A DNA stretch of 64,000 nucleotides, from assembly GCF_004786015.1 (NCBI RefSeq), contig NZ_CP032096.1, positions 372,001 to 436,000 on the forward strand, in the 5' to 3' direction. This document shows, piece by piece, positions 42,594 through 56,742 of the stretch (position 1 is its first letter; each line of letters opens with the position of its first letter). This DNA comes from Hydrogenovibrio crunogenus. Lineage in GTDB: Bacteria > Pseudomonadota > Gammaproteobacteria > Thiomicrospirales > Thiomicrospiraceae. Under the pieces are notes generated by a model. The model ran no database searches, was not told where the DNA came from, and was given only the letters and a program-made list of their open reading frames with translations. The translations under genes and the position numbers were made by a program.

Positions 42594-42670
42594 GGCTACA
42601 TAGCTCAGCTGGTTAGAGCACATCACTCATAATGATGGGGTCCCAGGTTCAAATCCCGGTGTAGCCACCA
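42594..42670 (+). tRNA. Elongator tRNA-Met (anticodon CAU), island integration site
   Basis: A 77-nt tRNA with encoded CCA. Acceptor arms GGCTACA/TGTAGCC, anticodon arm CATCA-CTCATAA-TGATG with anticodon CAT, and T arm GGTTCAAATCC. It resembles the elongator Met tRNA, not the initiator or the lysidine-type Ile tRNA. Its 3' end is repeated at 56719-56739, marking the attachment site of the island. Confidence 0.95.
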
Positions 42671-42676
42671 TATTCC
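42656..42676 (+). repeat. attL: 21-bp direct repeat in the 3' end of tRNA-Met
   Basis: Begins CCGGTGTAGCCACCA and ends ATATTCC. It spans the last 15 bases of the tRNA and six bases beyond. An identical copy is at 56719-56739. Flanks diverge immediately outside, as expected for an integrase crossover region. Confidence 0.92.
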
Positions 42677-42678
42677 AA

Positions 42679-42706
42679 AGCCCGGTTTTCATGCCGGGCT
42701 TTTTTA
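42679..42706 (+). terminator. Terminator downstream of tRNA-Met, island-derived
   Basis: AGCCCGG and CCGGGCT pair around TTTTCATG, followed by six T. Because it lies inside attL, it was probably brought by the island. The original tRNA terminator would be the hairpin after attR at 56743-56768. Confidence 0.85.
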
Positions 42707-42820
42707 TTTCAAATAATTCTAAATAAAGCCTTTATTTATGGGCTTCTAGCAGTTTCCTAAAAATTATTCAATTTTTTGCCCTTTCTGAAATTAACTTTTT
42801 TCAATCTTTTTTGCGTCATT

Positions 42821-42840
42821 TTTGTAAATATTTTGTAAAT
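42821..42840 (+). repeat. Left arm-type repeat of the island
   Basis: A 20-bp AT-rich sequence made of two TTTGTAAAT units is repeated exactly, in the same orientation, at 56649-56668 near attR. Matching repeats near both ends are typical of integrase arm-binding sites. The rest of the 279-base stretch between the tRNA and the integrase holds only the terminator and T-rich sequence. Confidence 0.7.
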
Positions 42841-42949
42841 ATTTTTGTATTTCCAGAAAAGATTTGGATTTTATTTACAAACGATCTATAGTTTCAAAAA
42901 GAATAATTCTAAATATGTACTTTTTGAATCAAGAAATGAGATTGCTGTT

Positions 42950-44318
42950 ATGGTCAAAGAAGTTAATTTCAATGTATTGGATGTTGATTCTGTAGTGTCA
43001 TCACTTAATGCACAACACTTAGAGATTACGCATAAGGATGGTCATTCTTTCCCTGTAATGTACGGTTTGTATTTGAAAGTATCACTCAAAAACAAAAAAA
43101 CATGGCGATTAAGATATAAGGACCTAAATGGCAAATATCAGTTCAAAAAGCTCGGAGACTTTCCTTCGATGCGATTTGATGAAGCTAAACAAAAAATGAC
43201 ATCGTTTAATAGTAGCCTTGAAGCTCGAATTGATCCATTTAAAAAAGAGAAAGAAGAACAAAAAGTATTTCCAATAGCGAAGTTAAAGTTTAAAGATGCT
43301 TTTGCTAAATTTTGTGACTTTAAACGTGGGAATGGTAATATTGAGAATGCGAAATGGATGGAGGGAACATTAGAGCAACATATAAAGATTTTCAACAAAC
43401 ATGTCCTTCCAAAAATTGGAGATGAAGATGTTTCTAATGTCACTGTACAAGATCTAACAAAGGTATTAAAAGACATTGAAGCAGTTGGTTCTCTTACGAT
43501 TAGAGACAAAACTTTAAAGGCTTTTAGGGGAATGTATAGTTGGATGGTCGGTCAATATATTAATGACGGGGACCACAGATATCCTAGCCTAAATATTGCG
43601 AACTCTATTACAAAAGATACATTTATTCAAAGAAAGCCAAAAAATTTTAAGCATGTCACTACTGTTAGTGATGTTAAGAGGTTGGTTAATAAAGTTTACA
43701 ACCTTAATGCAACTTTTGAAATTCGACAAGCTTTGAAAATCCAATTACATTTATTTTTGAGACCAGGACCTCTTTCGGAACTTTTATGGAGTGATGTTAG
43801 ATTCTTGGAAGACCTTGAAGTACGTACCAAAGAAGATAAATACGACTTGCTTGAAATACCAAAAGAACGGATGAAAATGAATGCTGATTATCTTTCGACT
43901 TTGTCCCCTCAAGTTCGAAAACTATTTTTGGAGTTAAGAGAAGTTACAGGGCATTCTGATTATGTTTTTTTAAGTCCTTACCGGTCTGGTGATAATAGGC
44001 CAATCACCAGGGATTCATTATTGAGCGCAATGAAAAGAAATGGAATTGATGATACCACTACACATGGGTTCCGGCATATGGCTTCAACTTTATTAAGAGA
44101 TGAGCTTGGATTTGATCAAGACGCATCCGCCATAGAGGTGCAATTGAGTCATACCATCGGGGGGGATAGAAGGGTATTACAACAAAGCAAAATATCTTGA
44201 TAGACGCTTTAAGATTATGAATGCTTGGAGTGAGTTTATTGAAAGTTTAGTCGATAAAAAAACTGTCAAAAAAGAAATGAGCATGCCACGAGAAGAAAAT
44301 GACGAGCCAAAACTGTAG
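42950..44318 (+). pseudogene. P4-type tyrosine integrase, frameshifted in a G7 tract
   Basis: Site-specific recombinase of the tRNA-island type. An N-terminal DUF4102-like domain (GLYLKVSLKNKKTWRLRY) is followed by a core-binding region and a catalytic domain with Arg (LFLRPGPLSELLW), HGFRHMAST and LSHTIGG. At 44159-44165 a run of seven G shifts the frame and the protein stops at 44200. Removing one G restores GGIEGYYNKAKYLDRRF, which carries the nucleophilic Tyr, to TAG 44318. That TAG lies within the IS3 terminal repeat, so the last residues are IS-derived. Confidence 0.85.
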
Positions 44319-44367: not shown

Positions 44368-46824
<2,457 letters not shown>

Positions 46825-47964: not shown

Positions 47965-49089
47965 CTAACCTACCTTATATCTGTCAATTAAAGTGTCGGA
48001 AGTCTGGTTTGCCTGTTTAGAGTAGTCTACGATCTTTTCAAAGATTGTCTTCGCTAAAAGAGGGGGGACTGCATTTCCTACTTGTTGCTGCATATAGGAA
48101 ATCGGGCCTTGAAATTCGTAACTATCTGGAAAGCTTTGTATTCGTGCAGCTTCTCTAAGTGAAAGGCCACGATGTTGTGTAGGATGGATTAGCATGCTCT
48201 TTCTGTAATTTGATATTGTTGGAGCAAAATCCTTATATTTCAGTCGTCGATAAATACCGCTATGAGTGTTGTGGGTTGATGAGTATGTGGTCATGAAACC
48301 TTTTTCAGCAGCAGCCTTCCAGTTTTCACCTTGTTTAATTACTTTATATCTTTCTATGACGGTATCGTTGTTTTTACTAACAAAATTTTGGATGGCGTGA
48401 CTCATACCATTTCTGAGAAGTCTGGCATATTCACTTTTAGGCTCGCATTTATATTGTAGTTTTTGAGACATTTGCCCATTTTGTAATAGTGGTAAATCAA
48501 AAATTGCATCGTGAATTGTCACTGGAGAAATGTGTTCTAAGGAATCAAAGTCAAATGCTATTCCACCTAATGTTTTTTTATGTCCAATTATAAAAAACCT
48601 AAAACGTTTTTGGGGAACGCCAAAAACTGCGGCGTTTAAAATTTTTGAGGAGGTTTGATATCCCAGCTTTTGTAAAGCGGATTCAACATCATTGGAAAAG
48701 TTTCCTTTGTCGAATGATGCGAAACCTTCAACATTTTCGAAAACAAACCAATCAGGCTGAAGTGTATCAACGAACCTAAGATATTCTTTAAACATCCAGT
48801 TGTTTGGGTTATCTAAATTTCTTGTCCTTGTGTTTGCATGAGAGAAACCTTGGCATGGTGGACCACCAAATAAGATGAAAGGACTCTCCGAAATATGTTC
48901 AAGCGGATCTACTTCAGAAATGTCATTCTGTAAAACTTGAGTGTTGGGGTGATTAAAACGATAGGTTTCGGCGGCGTATTGATCGAGTTCAACGGATAGC
49001 TTTACGTTAATGCCTGCTAGTGATGCTCCGACACTCATTCCGCCGGCACCAGAAAAAATATCAACCGCAATATAGTTATTTTTGTTCAT
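47965..49089 (-). CDS. DNA (cytosine-5) methyltransferase
   Basis: SAM-dependent C5-cytosine methyltransferase of 374 residues. Seen are motif I DIFSGAGGMSVG, motif IV GGPPCQGFSH with catalytic Cys near residue 79, motif VI FVFENVEGF, motif VIII VPQKRFRFFIIG, a target-recognition region (~200-310) and motif X QVGNAVPPLLA. It is transcribed away from the second methyltransferase operon, with a 177-base regulatory gap. No endonuclease gene is on its own side, so it may protect host DNA or serve with the divergent operon. Confidence 0.93.
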   Translation of the reverse strand: MNKNNYIAVDIFSGAGGMSVGASLAGINVKLSVELDQYAAETYRFNHPNTQVLQNDISEVDPLEHISESPFILFGGPPCQGFSHANTRTRNLDNPNNWMFKEYLRFVDTLQPDWFVFENVEGFASFDKGNFSNDVESALQKLGYQTSSKILNAAVFGVPQKRFRFFIIGHKKTLGGIAFDFDSLEHISPVTIHDAIFDLPLLQNGQMSQKLQYKCEPKSEYARLLRNGMSHAIQNFVSKNNDTVIERYKVIKQGENWKAAAEKGFMTTYSSTHNTHSGIYRRLKYKDFAPTISNYRKSMLIHPTQHRGLSLREAARIQSFPDSYEFQGPISYMQQQVGNAVPPLLAKTIFEKIVDYSKQANQTSDTLIDRYKVG

Positions 49090-49266: not shown

Positions 49267-49488
49267 ATGAAAGATAAGAAAACAAAGTTTGTAGAATTAG
49301 CAAATAATAGAGTGAATAGGACTATTAAAGACCTGAGATTGATAGGCAATTTAGCAAATAAGAATAATTATGAGTATGACGATGCTCAGACAAACAAAAT
49401 CATAAAAGTTCTCCAAGATGAGCTAGATGAAGTAAAAAGAAAGTTTGATTCAAATAGGTCAGGCTTAAAAAAAGATTTTAAATTGTGA
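49267..49488 (+). CDS. Small conserved-looking protein leading the methyltransferase operon
   Basis: A 73-residue charged helical protein (FVELANNRVNRTIKDLRLIGNL, given here by its first part, then a Lys/Glu-rich tail). Similar short proteins precede methyltransferases or defence genes in other bacteria, in my recollection; the function is unknown. Its stop overlaps the start of the next gene by four bases, so it is translationally coupled. A role as regulator or subunit is an inference. Confidence 0.65.
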   Translation: MKDKKTKFVELANNRVNRTIKDLRLIGNLANKNNYEYDDAQTNKIIKVLQDELDEVKRKFDSNRSGLKKDFKL

Positions 49489-50531
49489 ACTTAAAGAAGG
49501 ATATTGCATTGGCGGATAGGCAATTTACAGCAGGAGCTTTGTTTGCAGGGATTGGAGGGTTTTGTCTCGGTTTTTCAGGTGCAGGTATCAAAACAGTGTG
49601 GGCAGTAGAGAATGATGAGAATGCTGTTAAAACATATTTGAAAAATATAAATGATGTTAGGGTTATTACTCATGAAGATAAACCTGCTGACATAAGAAAT
49701 GTCAAAGTAATAAATGATGACTTAGAGCCAGTCGATGTTTTACATGCTGGTTTTCCATGTCAAAGCTTTTCTATAGCAGGGAATAGGAATGGCTTCAATG
49801 ATGAACGGGGAAAGTTGTTTTTTGAAATTATTCGTATAGTAAATGAGTTTAAAGATAAAAAGCCTTCGGTTATTGTTTTGGAAAATTCACCTAATATCAA
49901 AAATGGTGGCGATGGAGCTTGGTTTGTTGAAATTAAGAAAGAGCTTCAACGAGCAGGGTATTGGTTCAGAGAATCTAATGCTCAGGAACTCGATATATAT
50001 GAGTTGACAACATTACCGCAAAAAAGAAATAGACTTTTCATGGTTGCTTTTTCTCGAAATCATTTTAAAAGTGGAAAATTTACTTTTCCTCATACTCATA
50101 ACACGGAGGATAAAAGCTTATCTAGCTTAGTGGGCTTTGATAAGGCTTTATCTGATGATTATTATTATCTTGATGAGCATAATCGCTACTACAAGATGAT
50201 TTCAAATGAGGTAGAAGATACTTCGTGTATATATCAGTTGAGAAAATACTTAGTTAGAGTAAAAGAAAGGGATGTTTGTCCAACGTTGACAGCCAATATG
50301 GGTCTTGGAGGGCATAACGTACCATTTATTCACGATCAAAAAGGTTTAAGGAAGCTAACCGAATATGAGTGTTTAAAAATTCAAGGTTTTCCTGATAGGT
50401 TTATGTTTCCAGATGAAGTGGCAAGGTCAAAGAGGTATATGCAGGTGGGCAATTCAGTTAGCGTGCCAGTAGCTCGATTATTGGCTGAACAGGTAAGAAA
50501 GAAAATCATAGAGGATAGAAAAAATGGGTGA
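49485..50531 (+). CDS. DNA (cytosine-5) methyltransferase of the GHKL-ATPase operon
   Basis: C5-cytosine methyltransferase of 348 residues. Motif I is ALFAGIGGFCLGF; motif IV is AGFPCQSFSIAG with the catalytic Cys near residue 92. Motif VI is VLENSPNI, motif VIII LPQKRNRLFMVAF, and motif X MQVGNSVSVPVA. The recognition region (~200-290) is unlike that of the divergent methyltransferase, so targets probably differ. It starts at GTG 49485 overlapping the small gene and ends overlapping the ATPase gene by eight bases. Confidence 0.92.
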   Translation: MNLKKDIALADRQFTAGALFAGIGGFCLGFSGAGIKTVWAVENDENAVKTYLKNINDVRVITHEDKPADIRNVKVINDDLEPVDVLHAGFPCQSFSIAGNRNGFNDERGKLFFEIIRIVNEFKDKKPSVIVLENSPNIKNGGDGAWFVEIKKELQRAGYWFRESNAQELDIYELTTLPQKRNRLFMVAFSRNHFKSGKFTFPHTHNTEDKSLSSLVGFDKALSDDYYYLDEHNRYYKMISNEVEDTSCIYQLRKYLVRVKERDVCPTLTANMGLGGHNVPFIHDQKGLRKLTEYECLKIQGFPDRFMFPDEVARSKRYMQVGNSVSVPVARLLAEQVRKKIIEDRKNG

Positions 50532-52383
50532 TATTGGATGGTTTCACCCCGTTGATGAAGCGGATCAATGGGATGGTTTTAATGATTCTGGAATTGAGCA
50601 CTTTCGAGGGGAGCCTCTTTCAAACCTTGCTAGAGAAATTATTCAAAACGCTATGGATGCATCCATTAAAGGTTCAATTGTCAATGTTGATATTCTCTTA
50701 AAGTCGATTCCGACACAAGAAATTCCTAACCTAGAGGAATTGTTACAGAACTTACAAAGCTGTTTGGAGGCTTCAAAGTTTGAAAGCGGAGAAAAAGCCA
50801 AAAATTTCTTTCAAAATGCGATTCACTTATTGACTCAGAAAAATGTAAAAGTATTGGAAATTTCTGACTGTAATACTACAGGAATGAATGGGCCGGCAAT
50901 GAACGGAACACCATTTTATGCTTTTATGAAAGCAAGAGGGCAGAGTAAAAAAAGTGATGAAACTGCTGGTGGCTCATACGGTATCGGAAAGTTCGCACCA
51001 TATGCGGTATCTCTTGCAAGAACAGTTTTTGTTTCAACCGTTTATAAAGATGAATCTGGTGTTTATGAACAGCTGAATCAAGCAAAATCTTTGCTCATGT
51101 CACATGATGATGAGGAAGGGAATAGAAGACAAGCTATTGGTTATTGGGGGGTAAAGGAAAAATGTATGCCAGTCAAAGGCAACGCAGATAACGTCCCAAA
51201 CTGGTTGAGCATGCAAAGTTCTTCCAATATTCAGACTGGAACAAAGCTAGTTGTGCTTGCTTTCGATGATTCAAATAAAGATTGGGAGAAACTTTTAGTA
51301 GCTTCAATAGTGGAAAACTTTTTTGGAGCTATATCCAAAGAGCAACTTCTAGTAAATGTTAATGGAGAGTATGAGCTAAACAAGAATACTCTTCTAGAAA
51401 TATTTGATAACGCAGATATTTTGGGTGCTTTGGATGAAGATGGTTTAGAGATATTTTTGAACAGAAAGCATTATTTGGAAGCTTACGAAGGAAATTCTTT
51501 TATTGAGGCAACTCAGAATACCGTTCTTGGTCATTGTGAATTAAAAATTATGGTAAATGAGGGGTTGCCTAGCAAGGTCTGTGCTTTAAGAAATGGTATG
51601 TTTATTACAGAGCAATTGAGGAGGTTGATAAGGTTTCCTGGTTATAAAGACTTTGTAGCTGTATTTGAGTGTACCAATCCAACAGGAAATGAACTGCTGA
51701 GAGCGATGGAGCCACCTAGACATGATGGTTTTGAGCCTGAGCGCTTAGATGCGGATAAAAAATCTCAAGGGAATAAGGCATTAAATGATATTGCAGTATG
51801 GATTAGAGAAGCCTTAAAAAAATATGCAAAGGAACCGTCATCAGATGTTTCTAGTATTGATGAGCTTAAAGAGTTCTTTGGGTATGAGGATAATGAGAAC
51901 ACTACTAATGCGGAGAAAGAGATTAATCCTTTTGGAAATATTGTGTGGAAGCCTCGGCCGATAAAAGTCAGTACATTATCATTGAGTGCAAAAGGAGGTC
52001 AGGGGCCTGGTGATGGTCCAGGAGTGACTGGTGGTGGTAATGATGGAGAAGGTGGCTCAGGTACTAGTGGTGGTTCTAACGAAGGTGAGTCCGGAGGCGA
52101 TGCTAAGAAAAGCATTTCAATTAAAGACGTGAGATCTTTTTTAATTCCAAATGGAAAAAGATCGTTGTCTTTCACACCATATTCTTCTGGGGAAATCAAT
52201 TTGTCCTTGCTTGAGTGTGGGTCGGACCAAGATTATTTCATTGCTGTAAGAGAAGCTGATTTAGGAAAGGTTGTTGATGGCCGAATAAATATGACGGTTG
52301 TTCAGGGGCAAAGATATAGATTAACTGTTGAGGTTGAGGATTCTTTTGATGGCGCAATAAAGGTGGTTGCAAATGAAGTTTGA
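50524..52383 (+). CDS. GHKL (MutL/MORC/Hsp90-like) ATPase, restriction-like operon
   Basis: A 619-residue protein with the full Bergerat ATP fold: N box EIIQNAMDAS near residue 42, G1 box EISDCNTTGM near 112-121, and G2 lid GGSYGIGKFAPYAVS near 149. A middle region (~200-440) may be an S5-like or transducer domain. A Gly/Ser-rich linker (~490-530) leads to a C-terminal beta-rich domain (~535-619). Prokaryotic MORC/MutL-like ATPases are known beside methyltransferases and nucleases. Here it may couple target sensing to cleavage. It overlaps its neighbours on both sides. Confidence 0.85.
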   Translation: MGDIGWFHPVDEADQWDGFNDSGIEHFRGEPLSNLAREIIQNAMDASIKGSIVNVDILLKSIPTQEIPNLEELLQNLQSCLEASKFESGEKAKNFFQNAIHLLTQKNVKVLEISDCNTTGMNGPAMNGTPFYAFMKARGQSKKSDETAGGSYGIGKFAPYAVSLARTVFVSTVYKDESGVYEQLNQAKSLLMSHDDEEGNRRQAIGYWGVKEKCMPVKGNADNVPNWLSMQSSSNIQTGTKLVVLAFDDSNKDWEKLLVASIVENFFGAISKEQLLVNVNGEYELNKNTLLEIFDNADILGALDEDGLEIFLNRKHYLEAYEGNSFIEATQNTVLGHCELKIMVNEGLPSKVCALRNGMFITEQLRRLIRFPGYKDFVAVFECTNPTGNELLRAMEPPRHDGFEPERLDADKKSQGNKALNDIAVWIREALKKYAKEPSSDVSSIDELKEFFGYEDNENTTNAEKEINPFGNIVWKPRPIKVSTLSLSAKGGQGPGDGPGVTGGGNDGEGGSGTSGGSNEGESGGDAKKSISIKDVRSFLIPNGKRSLSFTPYSSGEINLSLLECGSDQDYFIAVREADLGKVVDGRINMTVVQGQRYRLTVEVEDSFDGAIKVVANEV

Positions 52384-53206
52384 AGATCAGAAGGCATTTC
52401 CATATCCTGTGTTAAGGCCACATAGTGATGACTATTTGGACTGTGAATTTCAGGTAATTATAGATCCTGAAGTTGCCGAAAACAGATTGTCTATTGAAGT
52501 GGATTTTATTCTTTCAAATGAAGAAATACTTTCCGAAATCGAGATGGGGAAAGCTAAGTATGTTTCGGTAGTTTCATGTCGAGATACTTTTTTCAAAGAG
52601 ATAGAAATCACTGGAGATAAAAAATTAAAGAGAGTTTTCCCTGTAGATTCTCTGAGAGGAGAAGTCTTGGTTGAAAGCTATGTGGTCGCAACTGACACAA
52701 TCAAAAATTTTAAATCTGACGATTTAAACAAAGAATTTGAAAGCGTCGAAATTGATTTTGAAAAAGGTGATTTATTAGCGCAGGATGAGCCATATGTTCT
52801 ATATATTGATAAGGAATATTTTGGTCATGTCATTTCAGTGCTGGAATTGGTTAAGGTAGATGGCTTGGACTATGGCGAATTTAATATAAATCTTGAAGGT
52901 CATCATATTCAAATTGAATTGAATTCAGAAATGAAGGATTCAATTGATGAAGCTAGAAATGAAAGAGCGAATAAATTGATTCTGACGAATTCGATATATT
53001 TTACGGCGATAACCTACGCCATTGAAAATTTGAAAAGTTCAAAAGAAGATTATAAGGATTACAAGTGGGCAGATGTTATTGAAAAGCAAGCTCTTAACAA
53101 AGCAATCTCACTGGATTCAAATGAGGATGCTTATAAAGTTGCTACGCAGCTGATGAAAAACCCATTGGTTATGCTTGCTAAATACGTTTTTAAAAGGGAT
53201 TCGTAA
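52373..53206 (+). CDS. Unrecognised protein of the methyltransferase-ATPase operon
   Basis: I do not recognise the family. It has 277 residues, acidic and without membrane segments. The N-terminal half (~1-125) looks beta-rich and starts KAFPYPVLRPHSDDYLD. The C-terminal half is more helical. ATG 52373 follows AAAGGTGG and overlaps the ATPase stop; the next gene begins on its last stop base (TAATG). Such strict coupling suggests it forms a complex with the ATPase or the next protein. Confidence 0.7.
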   Translation: MKFEDQKAFPYPVLRPHSDDYLDCEFQVIIDPEVAENRLSIEVDFILSNEEILSEIEMGKAKYVSVVSCRDTFFKEIEITGDKKLKRVFPVDSLRGEVLVESYVVATDTIKNFKSDDLNKEFESVEIDFEKGDLLAQDEPYVLYIDKEYFGHVISVLELVKVDGLDYGEFNINLEGHHIQIELNSEMKDSIDEARNERANKLILTNSIYFTAITYAIENLKSSKEDYKDYKWADVIEKQALNKAISLDSNEDAYKVATQLMKNPLVMLAKYVFKRDS

Positions 53207-53940
53207 TGGCTATTTCAATGTTCAAAGAGAAAACTTTTTTGAGTCTATACAATAGTGTGCCAGAAAATTTGGAACTTTATAGAGAAGGAGGGTTTCAAGA
53301 ATCGATTCCTGAAGACGGGTTGATTCCGTTAAGTGGTGTAGGGGAAGATTTGGATTCTTTAGAAGCTCTGAGTTTTGATTCAAGCGGCGCTGATGATTTT
53401 TATCTGGAAGAAGTGAAGAGCGCTGTAATTGTTTTCAGAGCCTTAGAAGAGCTTACATTGTACTTAGCAAGGGATAAGAGGTTTTGGGCGTTTCTAACTC
53501 ACACGGCGTTGTTGTCATATTCTAGAAAAAGATGGTTAATTCCAGAAGACGACGAAGAGGCAGTTAAGTTCGTGAGAAAGCATTTTTTCGGTTCTAACCA
53601 TCGAGAGTTAGAAAGAGATAATGCTGCATCTCGATTGTGGTGGATGGCCAAGCTTTGTTCGAATGTTGATGGGTTGTCTTTAGAGGACTCGTTAGTTTCT
53701 CTTATGTATAGAGCTGATGTTAGAGCAAATTTAATTGAAAGACCTACTACGGCTCTAAATATGAACGTTTTCTCTATGGTTATTAAACAATTACATGAGT
53801 CTTTTAAAAACGATAAAGCCTTGTTTGAAAGAATAAGATTTAGAGAGTTGATGAAATCTCTAAATGTTGAAGGTGGAAGAAGGTTGTTAGAAGTTGCGGA
53901 TGAGAATCAGCTTTGTAGTATTTTGGATTTAGGTGAATAA
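53206..53940 (+). CDS. Unrecognised protein, possibly DUF6339-like
   Basis: A 244-residue, mostly helical protein. The segment RDKRFWAFLTHTALLSYSRKRW (in part) near residues 85-106 recalls the DUF6339 pattern of an aromatic-rich helix followed by Tyr-x-Arg-x-Arg-Trp; this is from memory and tentative. No catalytic motif is obvious. It starts at the TAATG junction with the preceding gene. It is the last tightly coupled gene before the nuclease. Confidence 0.65.
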   Translation: MAISMFKEKTFLSLYNSVPENLELYREGGFQESIPEDGLIPLSGVGEDLDSLEALSFDSSGADDFYLEEVKSAVIVFRALEELTLYLARDKRFWAFLTHTALLSYSRKRWLIPEDDEEAVKFVRKHFFGSNHRELERDNAASRLWWMAKLCSNVDGLSLEDSLVSLMYRADVRANLIERPTTALNMNVFSMVIKQLHESFKNDKALFERIRFRELMKSLNVEGGRRLLEVADENQLCSILDLGE

Positions 53941-53997
53941 TTATTTAGGTAAAAGATTTCCATGCTCTGTTTTAATGGATCAATTTTATAATATGTG

Positions 53998-54675
53998 ATG
54001 AATTGTCTTCGGGTTGTGCAGGATATGAATCCTATGTGGCGTCAATATGAATGGTTAATTTCTAAAATATTTCACGATAATACGTCTTCACTGACAACCA
54101 AGATTTTGAATGATACTCGTGTAGTTGGTGAATATTCGGAGCGTTCTAGGCAAGTTGATATATTAATCAAAACCAAAACTCAAACAACAATGGTTGAGTG
54201 TAAGCATTACTCTGTTCCAGTCGACATTAAATCTGTAGAATCTTTTCTTGGAATGGTGACTGATGTGAAGGTTGATTATGGTATTTTGGTTTCTTCGAGT
54301 GGGTATACAAAATCTGCTGAAAAAAGAATACGGGGGCTAAAGGATAAAATTTCATTGGAGAACATTGATTGGGAAACGGCATATGAGACAGCATTTGAAG
54401 AGGTGTCTTATGGTCGAATATCTGATGTATGTGCTCATTGCGTAGACCGTTATGAATCAGGGCGAGAAGTGCCAGGTTTGTTATGTTGGGAGCATGGTTT
54501 TGCACTTGAATATCAAGGAACGGTTTCTGAGTTTTCAATTTCCAAATGTTTAAAATGTAATAAATATACGGCGTATTGTGATGCGTGTGGTTTGGTAACG
54601 CCTATAGAAAAAAATGACATTTGTTGTGATTTAGCAAGTCAATTTATTTCCTGGTACAAAGATACTTACCAGTAA
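53998..54675 (+). CDS. Mrr-like PD-(D/E)XK restriction endonuclease with C-terminal zinc-finger-like region
   Basis: The N-terminal domain (~10-125) shows the Mrr/RE-type order: Glu in RQYEWLISKIF, then Asp in RQVDILIK, then ECK in TMVECKHYSVPV, followed by VDYGILVSSSGYT. The C-terminal part holds paired cysteines (CAHC, CLKC, CDAC) suggesting a zinc ribbon. It is the likely nuclease of the methyltransferase-ATPase operon, 57 bases after the previous stop. The start is uncertain (GTG 53995, ATG 53998 or ATG 54025). Confidence 0.85.
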   Translation: MNCLRVVQDMNPMWRQYEWLISKIFHDNTSSLTTKILNDTRVVGEYSERSRQVDILIKTKTQTTMVECKHYSVPVDIKSVESFLGMVTDVKVDYGILVSSSGYTKSAEKRIRGLKDKISLENIDWETAYETAFEEVSYGRISDVCAHCVDRYESGREVPGLLCWEHGFALEYQGTVSEFSISKCLKCNKYTAYCDACGLVTPIEKNDICCDLASQFISWYKDTYQ

Positions 54676-54848: not shown

Positions 54849-55922
54849 ATGTTTGGTGAACGATTAAATCGTGCACGCTCTGCATCAGGATTGTCTCAAG
54901 CGGCTCTAGGAAAAGCTACTGGCGTCAGTGCGAATATGATTAAAAAATACGAACACAATGAAAGCATGCCATCTTCTTCTGTAATGATTCGGTTGTCAAA
55001 AACTCTTGATGTGCGAGCAGAATATTTTTTCCGTCCAGTTAAGGTTGAGTTAAAAAATGTTGAATATCGTAAACGCTCGTCAACTCCGAAGAAAGTTCTA
55101 AACCGCATTCATGCCGATGTTTTGGATCAGGCAGAGCGTTGGCTTCAATTAGCTAATTTATGGCCCAATTTTCCTATAAAACGGTTTAACCCCCCAGCTT
55201 CTTTACCAGATGAAATATTTGGTATTGAGGATATGGAAGCTTTTTCTGAATTAGTTCGCTCTGAATGGGAGTTAGGTTTAAACCCTATACCAGATCTAAT
55301 TGATTTGTTTGAATCAAAAGGTATTTTGGTTATTTCCACTGATGTTGAAATAGACGCCAAGTTTGATGGACTTCAAGCTGAAATCAATGGTCAGCCTGTA
55401 ATTGTGATTTCTTCCCTTTGGTCAGGGGATCGTCAGCGTTTTACCTTAGCACACGAACTCGGTCATATTTTGGTTCATGAACGCTTAGCGAATAATTTAG
55501 ATGAAGAAAAGGTCTGTAACCGCTTTGCTTCTTCATTTCTGTTACCACAAAAAGCATTTGTTGAGCACTTTGGTGAGAAGCGTTATGACTTGGAAGCTCG
55601 AGAATTGTATTTGCTTAAACATGAGTTTGGCTTAAGTATGGGGGCTTGCTTATATCGAGCAAAGGATTTAGGAGTTATTGCAGATAGTTTATATAAAAAA
55701 TTGACTATTAGTTTTGCTAAGAAAGGTTGGAGAAAGCGAGAACCAGGTGAACAACTCCCTCCTGAAAAGACATTTCTTTTTGAACAGTTAGTCTACCGAG
55801 GCTTGAGCGATGGGATTCTCTCTGAATCCAAAGCAGCAGAGTTGATGTCTATTTCGTTAATGGAGTTTCATCAACAACGAAAACTGGAAGATCAGGGAAG
55901 TTTGAGTGCAAATTCTCATTAG
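54849..55922 (+). CDS. XRE-HTH and ImmA/IrrE metallopeptidase fusion
   Basis: A 357-residue protein. An XRE-type helix-turn-helix (~5-60; LSQAALGKATGVSANMIKKYE) joins an M78 ImmA/IrrE peptidase domain with zinc motif HELGHILVH near residues 202-210 and FASSFLLP after it. The C-terminal helices (~290-350) may receive a signal. Such proteins relieve repression by cleaving regulators or act as antitoxins. The PIN gene overlaps its end by 17 bases, the usual pair structure. Confidence 0.88.
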   Translation: MFGERLNRARSASGLSQAALGKATGVSANMIKKYEHNESMPSSSVMIRLSKTLDVRAEYFFRPVKVELKNVEYRKRSSTPKKVLNRIHADVLDQAERWLQLANLWPNFPIKRFNPPASLPDEIFGIEDMEAFSELVRSEWELGLNPIPDLIDLFESKGILVISTDVEIDAKFDGLQAEINGQPVIVISSLWSGDRQRFTLAHELGHILVHERLANNLDEEKVCNRFASSFLLPQKAFVEHFGEKRYDLEARELYLLKHEFGLSMGACLYRAKDLGVIADSLYKKLTISFAKKGWRKREPGEQLPPEKTFLFEQLVYRGLSDGILSESKAAELMSISLMEFHQQRKLEDQGSLSANSH

Positions 55923-56385
55923 CGATGCAAATATTTTCATTGATTTAGAAGATGGAGAGCTTTTAGATAAGCTCTTCCAACTTCGATTTACCTTCAAAAC
56001 ACCAGATATTCTCTACTCAGAAGAATTAGAAGCTCAGCACAGTCATCTAATTGAAAATGGGTTGCAACTAACTGAGCTCAATGAGACATCTATGCATTAT
56101 GCTATGGCGTTGGTTGCTCAATCTTCTGGCCCAAGCACAAATGATTGTTTTGCGTTAGCTTCTGCTAAGCAGGAGGGTTGCCCATTACTTACAGGGGATG
56201 ATGCATTAAGGAAGCTTGCCAAAAAGGAAGGTGTGGTTGTTATGGGTACGCTATGGATTGTGGAGCAAATGGTTCACGGTCAGGCAATCTCCGTAGACGA
56301 AGCCAAAGACGCTTATAGCAAAATGAAAGTTGCAGGTAGCAGGCTGCCTTGGGATTTAGCCTTTAGTCGTTTAGATGAAATTTAG
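55906..56385 (+). CDS. PIN-domain protein, likely partner of the HTH-ImmA protein
   Basis: A 159-residue PIN-like protein, starting at GTG 55906 inside the previous gene. Acidic residues typical of PIN ribonucleases are present: ISDANIFIDL at the N terminus, an acidic YSEELEAQ near residue 40, STNDCFALASA near 85 and LTGDDALRKLA near 98. It may be the toxin of a two-gene module with the ImmA-type antitoxin, or a regulated nuclease; the toxic role is an inference. Confidence 0.8.
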   Translation: MQILISDANIFIDLEDGELLDKLFQLRFTFKTPDILYSEELEAQHSHLIENGLQLTELNETSMHYAMALVAQSSGPSTNDCFALASAKQEGCPLLTGDDALRKLAKKEGVVVMGTLWIVEQMVHGQAISVDEAKDAYSKMKVAGSRLPWDLAFSRLDEI

Positions 56386-56648
56386 TTCGTCTCAATTTTA
56401 CCTTAGTGATATGTCGAAATTTTTGAGTTTTATCGACATGTTCTAAAAAAGTGTTTATCACGTAAACATGTTCATGTCTTGGATTCTTCTCACATAATAT
56501 ATTGATTTATTTTAAATATTTTTAATAAAGGTATTTAAAAAGATGCTTGAGCGGTTTTATTTTGAATAATTTGCTATATGTTTGAGTGATTTTCTTGCGA
56601 ATGTTACGGAATCCTTTATTGGTAAAGGCGTAGAGGACAAATAGGTTT

Positions 56649-56668
56649 TTTGTAAATATTTTGTAAAT
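56649..56668 (+). repeat. Right arm-type repeat of the island
   Basis: Exact copy, same orientation, of the 20-bp AT-rich sequence at 42821-42840. It lies 50 bases before attR. The gap 56386-56844 contains only this repeat, attR and two terminators; an AT-rich minus-strand frame at 56522-56734 looks non-coding. Confidence 0.7.
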
Positions 56669-56718
56669 AAAGACATTAAATGTACTGGAACTGCTTTTAA
56701 ATTGGGAATGTCTGGATT

Positions 56719-56739
56719 CCGGTGTAGCCACCATATTCC
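56719..56739 (+). repeat. attR: 21-bp direct repeat of the tRNA-Met 3' end
   Basis: Identical to 42656-42676. It marks the right end of the island. The sequence upstream is not tRNA-like, so this is a partial tRNA copy left by integration. Confidence 0.92.
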
Positions 56740-56742
56740 TAA

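What the first reader, a model, noticed from the sequence alone, without database searches (positions are those of the whole stretch)
49267..54675. Candidate undescribed defence system: C5-methyltransferase, GHKL ATPase, two unknown proteins and an Mrr-like nuclease
Seen: five genes on one strand, four of them overlapping or sharing stop/start bases, encode a small helical protein, a cytosine-5 methyltransferase, a GHKL ATPase with complete N, G1 and G2 boxes and a Gly-rich linker, two proteins I cannot place, and then a PD-(D/E)XK nuclease with ECK motif and cysteine pairs. Known: MutL/MORC-like GHKL ATPases occur in some restriction systems, including ones with Z1 helicase, DUF4420 and AIPR genes (the Mza-type arrangement). 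Here no Z1, AIPR, SNF2 or other helicase is present, so the ATPase would have to provide the energy or gating step. Inference: a helicase-free, methylation-linked defence system in which the two unknown proteins link the ATPase to the nuclease.
Basis: partly seen in the sequence, partly recalled or inferred. Interest (0 to 1): 0.82.

Follow-up and report, generated by a model that had tools for sequence, protein, structure and literature searches.

The report
Swappable ATPase cassette in restriction systems
The window carries a small set of genes, built around a probable DNA-handling ATPase, that bacteria appear to plug as a unit into many unrelated DNA-cutting immune systems; a database already lists three of the genes as a defence candidate, and I found no description of what they do.

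Summary
The genes are there as described, but the picture differs. S (73 aa), M (C5-methyltransferase), A (GHKL-type ATPase), B and C form a tight operon. PADLOC already models A, B, C as candidate PDC-M33; C is Pfam DUF6339; A carries the ExxxH motif printed for "paraMORC2" (Iyer 2008). All lie in a ~14-kb island at a tRNA-Met. In loci fetched elsewhere, A-B-C recur in fixed order, mostly beside C5-methyltransferases, with very different nucleases (EcoRII, MvaI/BcnI, NgoFVII, MutH/Sau3AI, LlaJI, Mrr, AspBHI-like, GmrSD, HNH), sometimes sulfur-transfer or Mza genes. A, B and C diverge together; methyltransferase and nuclease are exchanged. S has no Pfam or PADLOC match and also precedes other GHKL-looking ATPases. 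Best reading: S-A-B-C is a portable ATP-driven helper module of restriction-modification systems; how it restricts is inference. New variant of a known kind; interest 0.55.

The parts
42594..42670 (+). tRNA-Met; its 3' end is the left attachment repeat
   Evidence: ARAGORN; direct repeat D4
42653..42679 (.). left direct repeat (attL-like)
   Evidence: 25 of 27 bases shared with 56716-56742
42845..44200 (+). 451-aa ORF that looks like a tyrosine integrase, apparently cut short at its C-terminus before the transposase gene
   Evidence: ORF; the label is by eye (HGFRH motif), not family-searched; a short ORF with similar letters (by eye) lies by the tRNA-Met of L021
47965..49089 (-). M2, second C5-methyltransferase, divergent
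   Evidence: PF00145 2.1e-67; five motifs; a divergent C5-methyltransferase in the same place in L021
49267..49488 (+). S, small helical-looking protein, conserved family without a Pfam or PADLOC match
   Evidence: HMM matches in 22 of 44 non-redundant loci; no match
49485..50531 (+). M, C5-cytosine methyltransferase
   Evidence: PF00145 2.4e-63; motifs
50524..52383 (+). A, GHKL-type ATPase, PDC-M33A, paraMORC2-like
   Evidence: PADLOC 2.1e-100; invariant N, G1, G2 residues and E396/P398/H400 over 34 sequences
51994..52104 (+). Gly-rich linker of A (residues 491-527)
52373..53206 (+). B, PDC-M33B; Ig/FN3-like sandwich plus helical tail in the model
   Evidence: PADLOC 4.9e-49; AlphaFold2 pLDDT 90.9, pTM 0.67; best VIA-align Z 8.7
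53206..53940 (+). C, PDC-M33C, DUF6339, almost all helical in the model
   Evidence: PADLOC 1.6e-26; PF19866 5.6e-37; AlphaFold2 pLDDT 92.3, pTM 0.89
53995..54675 (+). N, Mrr-like PD-(D/E)XK nuclease with a Cys-rich C-terminus; probably an exchangeable partner
   Evidence: PF04471 6.3e-11; no other hit among the ORFs
56716..56742 (.). right direct repeat (attR-like), end of the island
   Evidence: of four relatives looked at, the two repeat regions fall on one place in three and on two places about 3 kb apart in the fourth

Best explanation
S-A-B-C is a portable, co-inherited accessory module of restriction-modification (R-M) systems. A is a MutL/MORC-like GHKL ATPase that probably dimerises and closes on DNA with ATP. 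B (Ig-like sandwich plus helices) and C (helical, DUF6339) are its adaptors; S is a small partner made just ahead of the ATPase. The methyltransferase (here M, with M2) marks host DNA. The ATPase complex acts on unmarked or foreign DNA and licenses or helps whatever nuclease the local R-M system supplies; here that may be N. Shown: gene order, recurring trio, co-divergence of A, B and C, exchange of methyltransferase and nuclease, conserved ATP-site motifs, carriage on a tRNA island. Inferred: ATP-driven clamp, complex formation, recognition of marks, coupling to the nuclease, defence against phage.
For: A-B-C order in 38 of 44 non-redundant loci (37 of the 40 with at least 2.5 kb downstream); A and B overlap in all 41 loci where both are called (1-65 bases by the ORFs called); C5-methyltransferase within 8 kb in 34 of 36 loci, against 13 C5-methyltransferase matches in 37 related genomes. 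Spearman of pairwise distances over 37 loci: A-B 0.71, A-C 0.86, B-C 0.75, but A-M 0.25; for 579 of 666 distant pairs A-C 0.79, A-M 0.11. Nuclease type lies on the A tree as if dealt at random: EcoRII needs 7 changes for 7 rows (shuffled mean 6.7); all 13 labels 19 (19.6), 47 rows. At least eight nuclease types by Pfam. M overlaps A by 4-8 bases in all five members of the window's clade (clade 99/99). Iyer 2008 proposed ATP-driven DNA looping for such ATPases (PMC2292703).
Against: No experiment. A does not pass Pfam's HATPase cut-off (13.3 vs 25 bits) and profile comparison with MutL or MzaB gave no match; the GHKL call rests on motifs and on a distant relative (L028, HATPase_c_3 6.9e-10). 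27 of 47 tree rows have no nuclease assigned (not all neighbours were searched), and that label takes part in the random-scatter test. S was not found in half of the loci. Two plasmid loci (L076, L079) show no C5-methyltransferase. Nothing shows contact between the proteins or with N.
Confidence: 0.5

Rival explanations
1. S-A-B-C is a complete effector by itself, acting without a cut: it clamps or compacts incoming unmarked DNA (as MORC or SMC-like machines do), with the methyltransferase only for self-protection. Nucleases nearby are ordinary R-M neighbours.
For: No nuclease domain was recognised in S, A, B or C; nuclease type is random on the A tree; L021 has S, M, A, B, C and M2, and beside C only a 100-aa ORF without a match and a PDC-S44 protein.
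Against: Complete R-M sets with a nuclease are frequent in the loci; ORFs not searched may hide nucleases, and the PDC-S44 protein of L021 looks like DUF429, which I recall as a nuclease-like fold; a missing fold match does not exclude a nuclease.
Confidence: 0.25
2. The module is for upkeep, not defence: a MutL-like helper for Vsr-type repair of deaminated 5-methylcytosine, or a guard against self-cleavage by the R-M system.
For: Vsr genes within 8 kb in 14 of 36 loci; MutL assists Vsr in E. coli (recalled).
Against: In 22 of 36 my Vsr profile found none; the trio or its ATPase also occurs with PAPS-reductase-like genes (4 loci) and, by annotation, with adenine methyltransferases (L079); Vsr follows C5-methyltransferases anyway.
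Confidence: 0.12
3. One reading: a fixed helicase-free system in which B and C link the ATPase to the Mrr-like nuclease N.
For: N follows C by 54 bases on the same strand; proteins with an Mrr_cat domain also stand near the trio in L042 (and its near-copy L075) and L029.
Against: No close relative of N in the other loci; the nearest relatives have other neighbours (L029 AspBHI_N with Mrr_cat, L030 NOV_C, L021 a PDC-S44 protein; L031's neighbours were not family-searched).
Confidence: 0.1

Closest known systems
PDC-M33 (PADLOC-DB 2.0 candidate)
   Same: A, B and C hit PDC-M33A, B, C over nearly full length.
   Different: S and N matched no PDC-M33 model; for M and M2 only the best 25 of 64 and 63 hits are shown, none of them PDC-M33. 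No paper in the held library contains 'PDC-M33' or 'DUF6339'.
paraMORC ATPases in R-M operons, above all paraMORC2 (Iyer, Abhiman and Aravind 2008, PMC2292703)
   Same: GHKL motifs, conserved ExxxH (E396/H400), C5-methyltransferase and Vsr neighbours, helicase optional.
   Different: In parts 1-3 of 4 (part 4 not read, figures not held) I saw no mention of proteins like B, C or S as a trio, nor of exchange of nuclease types; the S5 domain was not tested here.
Mza (MzaB/MzaC)
   Same: A GHKL ATPase beside methyltransferases; MzaB and MzaC lie after M-A-B-C-M in Paenibacillus L057.
   Different: No Mza model among the hits shown for the nine window proteins (lists for M and M2 are capped at 25); comparison of A with MzaB-type proteins gave no match.
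Type II R-M (EcoRII, LlaJI, Sau3AI, NgoFVII and others)
   Same: C5-methyltransferase with a nuclease; two or more methyltransferases as in the LlaJI-bearing locus L050.
   Different: Classical Type II systems need no ATPase (recalled); here an ATPase module is added and inherited apart from methyltransferase and nuclease.
VcSduA (GHKL-Shedu, PMC12137116, passages read)
   Same: GHKL ATPase and a PD-(D/E)XK nuclease both needed for defence (reported there).
   Different: One fused protein, paraMORC3-like; the passages name no methyltransferase, B, C or S.
HEF_HK / Response_reg_2 pair (PMC8011034, passages read)
   Same: GHKL proteins linked with C5-methyltransferases and Vsr.
   Different: No member of the 34-sequence A alignment matched the HEF_HK Pfam model at E 0.1.

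Membership tests
PDC-M33 | proteins matching PDC-M33A, B and C side by side | tested here: met
   order
PDC-M33 | PADLOC's full system rule (which genes are required) | not testable with these tools
   only the protein models are at hand
paraMORC2 | N, G1 and G2 boxes of GHKL ATPases | tested here: met
   residues invariant over 34 sequences; three-motif pattern in 41 of 54 A ORFs and 0 of 125 other ORFs of 500 aa or more
paraMORC2 | profile-level relation to HATPase families | tested here: inconclusive
   window A 13.3 bits vs cut-off 25; 2 of 34 members match, weakly; distant relative L028 39.5 bits; hhalign with MzaB and MutL without match
[quoted passage not shown]
   E396 and H400 invariant; whether they lie in an S5 domain was not tested
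paraMORC2 | S5 domain after the GHKL domain | not tested
Type II R-M system | DNA methyltransferase | tested here: met
   M and M2, PF00145
Type II R-M system | cognate endonuclease cutting the same unmethylated site | not testable with these tools
   N is Mrr_cat but not conserved with M; specificity unknown
Mza | MzaB and MzaC proteins | tested here: not met
   complete PADLOC hit lists of A, B, C, N and the RHH, XRE and PIN proteins hold no Mza model; lists of M and M2 are capped at 25 and show none

The most novel reading that the evidence does not exclude
S-A-B-C is a general ATP-driven licensing module that can be fitted to almost any modification-based immune system (5-methylcytosine, adenine, perhaps sulfur), turning unrelated simple nucleases into ATP-gated ones; and S is a common small partner for several families of defence-linked GHKL ATPases.
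Probability: 0.25. Interest if true: 0.78.

Novelty: new variant of a known kind. Interest (0 to 1): 0.55.

Why it matters
Type II restriction is taught as needing no ATP (recalled). A module that moves as a block between Type II systems with unrelated nucleases suggests a hidden ATP-dependent layer in many of them, and makes the 2008 proposal that MORC-like ATPases serve restriction testable with one portable cassette. S gives a small marker, without Pfam or PADLOC match, for finding more GHKL-based defence loci.

Tried and rejected
Considered and set aside: Mza-type system (no MzaB or MzaC in the window); HEF_HK two-component-like pair (no such domain); a nuclease fold in B or C (no convincing solved match: C best Foldseek E 1.8, best VIA Z 4.1; B no Foldseek match at E 0.001 or better, top rows mostly Ig/FN3-like; absence of a match proves nothing). 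Profile-profile comparison of A with MzaB and MutL gave no match. PDB sequence searches for A, B, C and S gave only chance-level hits. A first motif pattern for GHKL missed true A proteins and matched 48 of 486 ORFs of 300 aa or more; it was replaced by the one. Pfam did not recognise most of the other ATPase-looking ORFs after S (only L109, E 0.0012, under the cut-off); their GHKL label is by motif and eye. In one search the small protein was translated one base out of frame; corrected later. Rows dropped: L075, L060 and L039 (near-identical A) from the census; L022, L028, L046, L063, L070, L069, L075, L060, L039 from the tree; from the distance test L046, L063, L070, L069, L075, L060, L039 and L041 by list, the distant loci L023-L026 and L028, L022 (copy of L045), and L036, L038, L047, L067, L068, which lacked a called C or a methyltransferase near enough by that script's rule.
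Full report
What is in the window. PADLOC matches A, B and C to PDC-M33A, B and C. The ATP-site motifs of A, the catalytic motif and Cys pairs of N, and the motifs of both methyltransferases are listed. M has ENS where most C5-methyltransferases have ENV (recalled); the glutamate is there.

M2 (47965-49089, -) is a second C5-methyltransferase that starts back to back with the operon. The whole set lies in an island of about 14 kb: the 3' end of tRNA-Met (42594-42670) is repeated at 56716-56742 with 25 of 27 bases. Four relatives of the genus were looked at: at the tRNA-Met of G010, G002 and G007 the two repeat regions fall on one place, as in an empty site; in G001 a second copy lies about 3 kb away. 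The island has 38.0% G+C against 44.4% for the rest of the window. An integrase-like ORF follows the tRNA (label by eye). The only two C5-methyltransferases found in the genome are M and M2.

The closest relative. A genome of the same family, another genus (G049, L021), has S, M, A, B, C and a divergent C5-methyltransferase where M2 is, also beside a tRNA-Met. Identities: M 76, A 67, B 73, C 67% (C over 181 residues). It lacks N; after C come a 100-aa ORF without a Pfam or PADLOC match and a PDC-S44 protein. So S-M-A-B-C with M2 is the kept unit and N is not.

Survey. One pattern-based scan of genome contigs with an A alignment gave 47 loci. After dropping three with near-identical A, 44 remain: A-B adjacent in 41, A-B-C in 38 (37 of the 40 with at least 2.5 kb downstream); S in 22; of the 36 with 3 kb or more on both sides, 34 have a C5-methyltransferase within 8 kb, 9 have two or more, 14 have Vsr. 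The two without are L063 (A ORF cut short) and L068 (SNF2 helicase, and genes that look like a Type III R-M by eye). For comparison 37 related genomes held 13 C5-methyltransferase matches in all; these are not the same taxa, so this is only a rough base rate. The survey starts from A and so says nothing of B or C without A. An independent draw helps: of 369 genomes of the class, DUF6339 was found in 3, at 4 places, and B lay beside it at all 4; B itself was found in 7 genomes at 9 places, the other 5 being weaker matches (E 1.2e-9 to 8.6e-4) without a DUF6339 match. A's PADLOC model matched 13 of 191 relatives, several only weakly.

Nucleases beside the trio. By Pfam: EcoRII-C (L020; other EcoRII-like ORFs by my HMM in L022/L045, L034, L038, L040, L048, L072), MvaI_BcnI (L043), NgoFVII (L053), MutH (L064), AspBHI_N with Mrr_cat (L029), Mrr_N with Mrr_cat (L042), EcoRII-N with HNH (L040), LlaJI with an AAA protein (L050), GmrSD_N (L073), and NOV_C, whose activity I did not test (L030); GmrSD_N and HNH in L026. 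My HMM also put L050 in the EcoRII class; I use the Pfam label. By annotation on plasmids: AlwI family (L076, L132), MutH/Sau3AI (L078), type II REase and Shedu (L133), adenine methyltransferases with an MmeI-like and a helicase gene (L079). L076 and L079 show no C5-methyltransferase by annotation or my HMM. In four distant loci (L023, L024, L026, L028; two on short or cut contigs) a PAPS-reductase-like gene lies beside A and no C5-methyltransferase was seen; L026 also has a cysteine-desulfurase-like gene and its PAPS-like protein a weak SspD match (2.9e-6). In Paenibacillus L057 MzaB and MzaC follow.

Is it one unit? Pairwise distances over 37 loci: A-B 0.71, A-C 0.86, B-C 0.75, A-M 0.25 (Spearman; Mantel p 0.002 or less for each); among 579 of 666 pairs with A under 45% identical: 0.56, 0.79, 0.62 and 0.11. 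On a 47-row tree of A the nuclease label is scattered: EcoRII 7 changes for 7 rows (shuffled mean 6.7), all 13 labels 19 (19.6; as low in 74 of 200 shuffles). Caution: 27 rows are 'unassigned' because not every neighbour was searched, and the tree program flagged several long branches. The window's clade (window, L021, L029, L030, L031; support 99/99) keeps M overlapping A by 4-8 bases in all five.

The proteins. A: 34 relatives keep R37, E38, Q41, N42, D45, D115, G120, G150, G153, I154, G155 and E396, P398, H400. Iyer 2008 (PMC2292703; parts 1-3 of 4 read) gives a strongly conserved ExxxH in paraMORC2 and reports operons of such ATPases with methylases, Vsr and REases, some without helicase; hence 'paraMORC2-like'. 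B: AlphaFold2 model pLDDT 90.9, pTM 0.67, best VIA Z 8.7 (rmsd 3.2, 105 residues; beta-galactosidase, with cytokine-receptor domains close behind), a common fold that shows no function. C: almost all helical, pLDDT 92.3, pTM 0.89, no solved match; A88, W94, R109, W110, R143 and W146 are invariant over 34 sequences.

S. The 73-aa protein is a real family (17-row alignment, mean column identity 53%) without Pfam or PADLOC match. In 369 genomes of the class 9 have a match, 7 of them at E 1.5e-12 or better. Of the 6 of these other than the window's, S precedes a divergent A (L112, L117) or an 805-854-aa ORF (L114, L115, L116), and in L113 no large ORF. On plasmids 15 records match; I looked at 12: S precedes the A-B-C trio in 4 (L077, L078, L132, L133) and other ORFs with GHKL-like motifs in 4 (L109, L110, L111, L128), in 4 not (L129, L130, L131, L134). 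The strict three-motif order holds for L109 and L128 only; for L110, L111, L114, L115, L116 and L121 the label is read by eye from an N-box and other Gly-rich stretches. The Dinoroseobacter and Agrobacterium loci continue with genes annotated as an ATP-binding protein and a UvrD helicase, reminiscent of Gabija.

Mobility. On plasmids A matches 24 records, all under 60% identity; one unannotated record among 50,697 phage records; five viral contigs.

Mechanism. The likely picture, after Iyer 2008, is a MutL/MORC-like ATPase that closes on DNA and brings recognition and cleavage together. That it works with whatever nuclease is at hand follows from the exchange of nucleases; that it senses modification follows only from its company. 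Neither is shown. Whether N is the cutter here is open.

Print search. 'DUF6339' and 'PDC-M33' are in no paper of the held library; 'paraMORC' is in 7; further searches showed no description of this gene set in the rows listed. Most subscription papers and preprints are not held.

Noticed in passing
54849-56385: XRE-HTH plus M78 peptidase protein (PADLOC RmrA 2.2e-53; NCBIfam spr1629 antitoxin 3.6e-35, under its cut-off) overlapping a PIN-domain gene: looks like a RosmerTA-type toxin-antitoxin pair (name recalled) at the island's distal end.
   Followed up: partly
44404-46824: Two transposase gene sets (IS256-like and IS3-like by eye) sit between the integrase-like ORF and the defence genes; the integrase ORF seems to lose its C-terminus there.
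   Followed up: no
42819-42841 and 56647-56669: An exact 23-base direct repeat just inside both island ends, perhaps integrase arm sites.
   Followed up: no
L051, L054, L056, L057, L066, L070: Paenibacillaceae loci with the order M-A-B-C-M followed by a second GHKL-looking ATPase and a larger protein (MzaB/MzaC confirmed by PADLOC in L057 only; broken into pieces in L070): two GHKL systems in one neighbourhood.
   Followed up: partly
L026, L023, L024, L028: Distant A beside a PAPS-reductase-like gene, in L026 also cysteine desulfurase, GmrSD and HNH genes: a possible sulfur-based DNA modification system with the same kind of ATPase.
   Followed up: partly
L109, L111: S followed by a GHKL-like ATPase, an ATP-binding protein and a UvrD helicase (annotation) on alphaproteobacterial plasmids; may be a Gabija variant with a GHKL partner.
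   Followed up: no
L147 (Vibrio harveyi plasmid): N's Cys-rich C-terminal part (residues 133-217) matches a stretch without an annotated gene at 35% identity.
   Followed up: no
L076: Lactococcus lactis conjugative plasmid pS127: AlwI-family REase, A-B-C with DUF6339, and AbiGI/AbiGII nearby; a laboratory-friendly relative.
   Followed up: no
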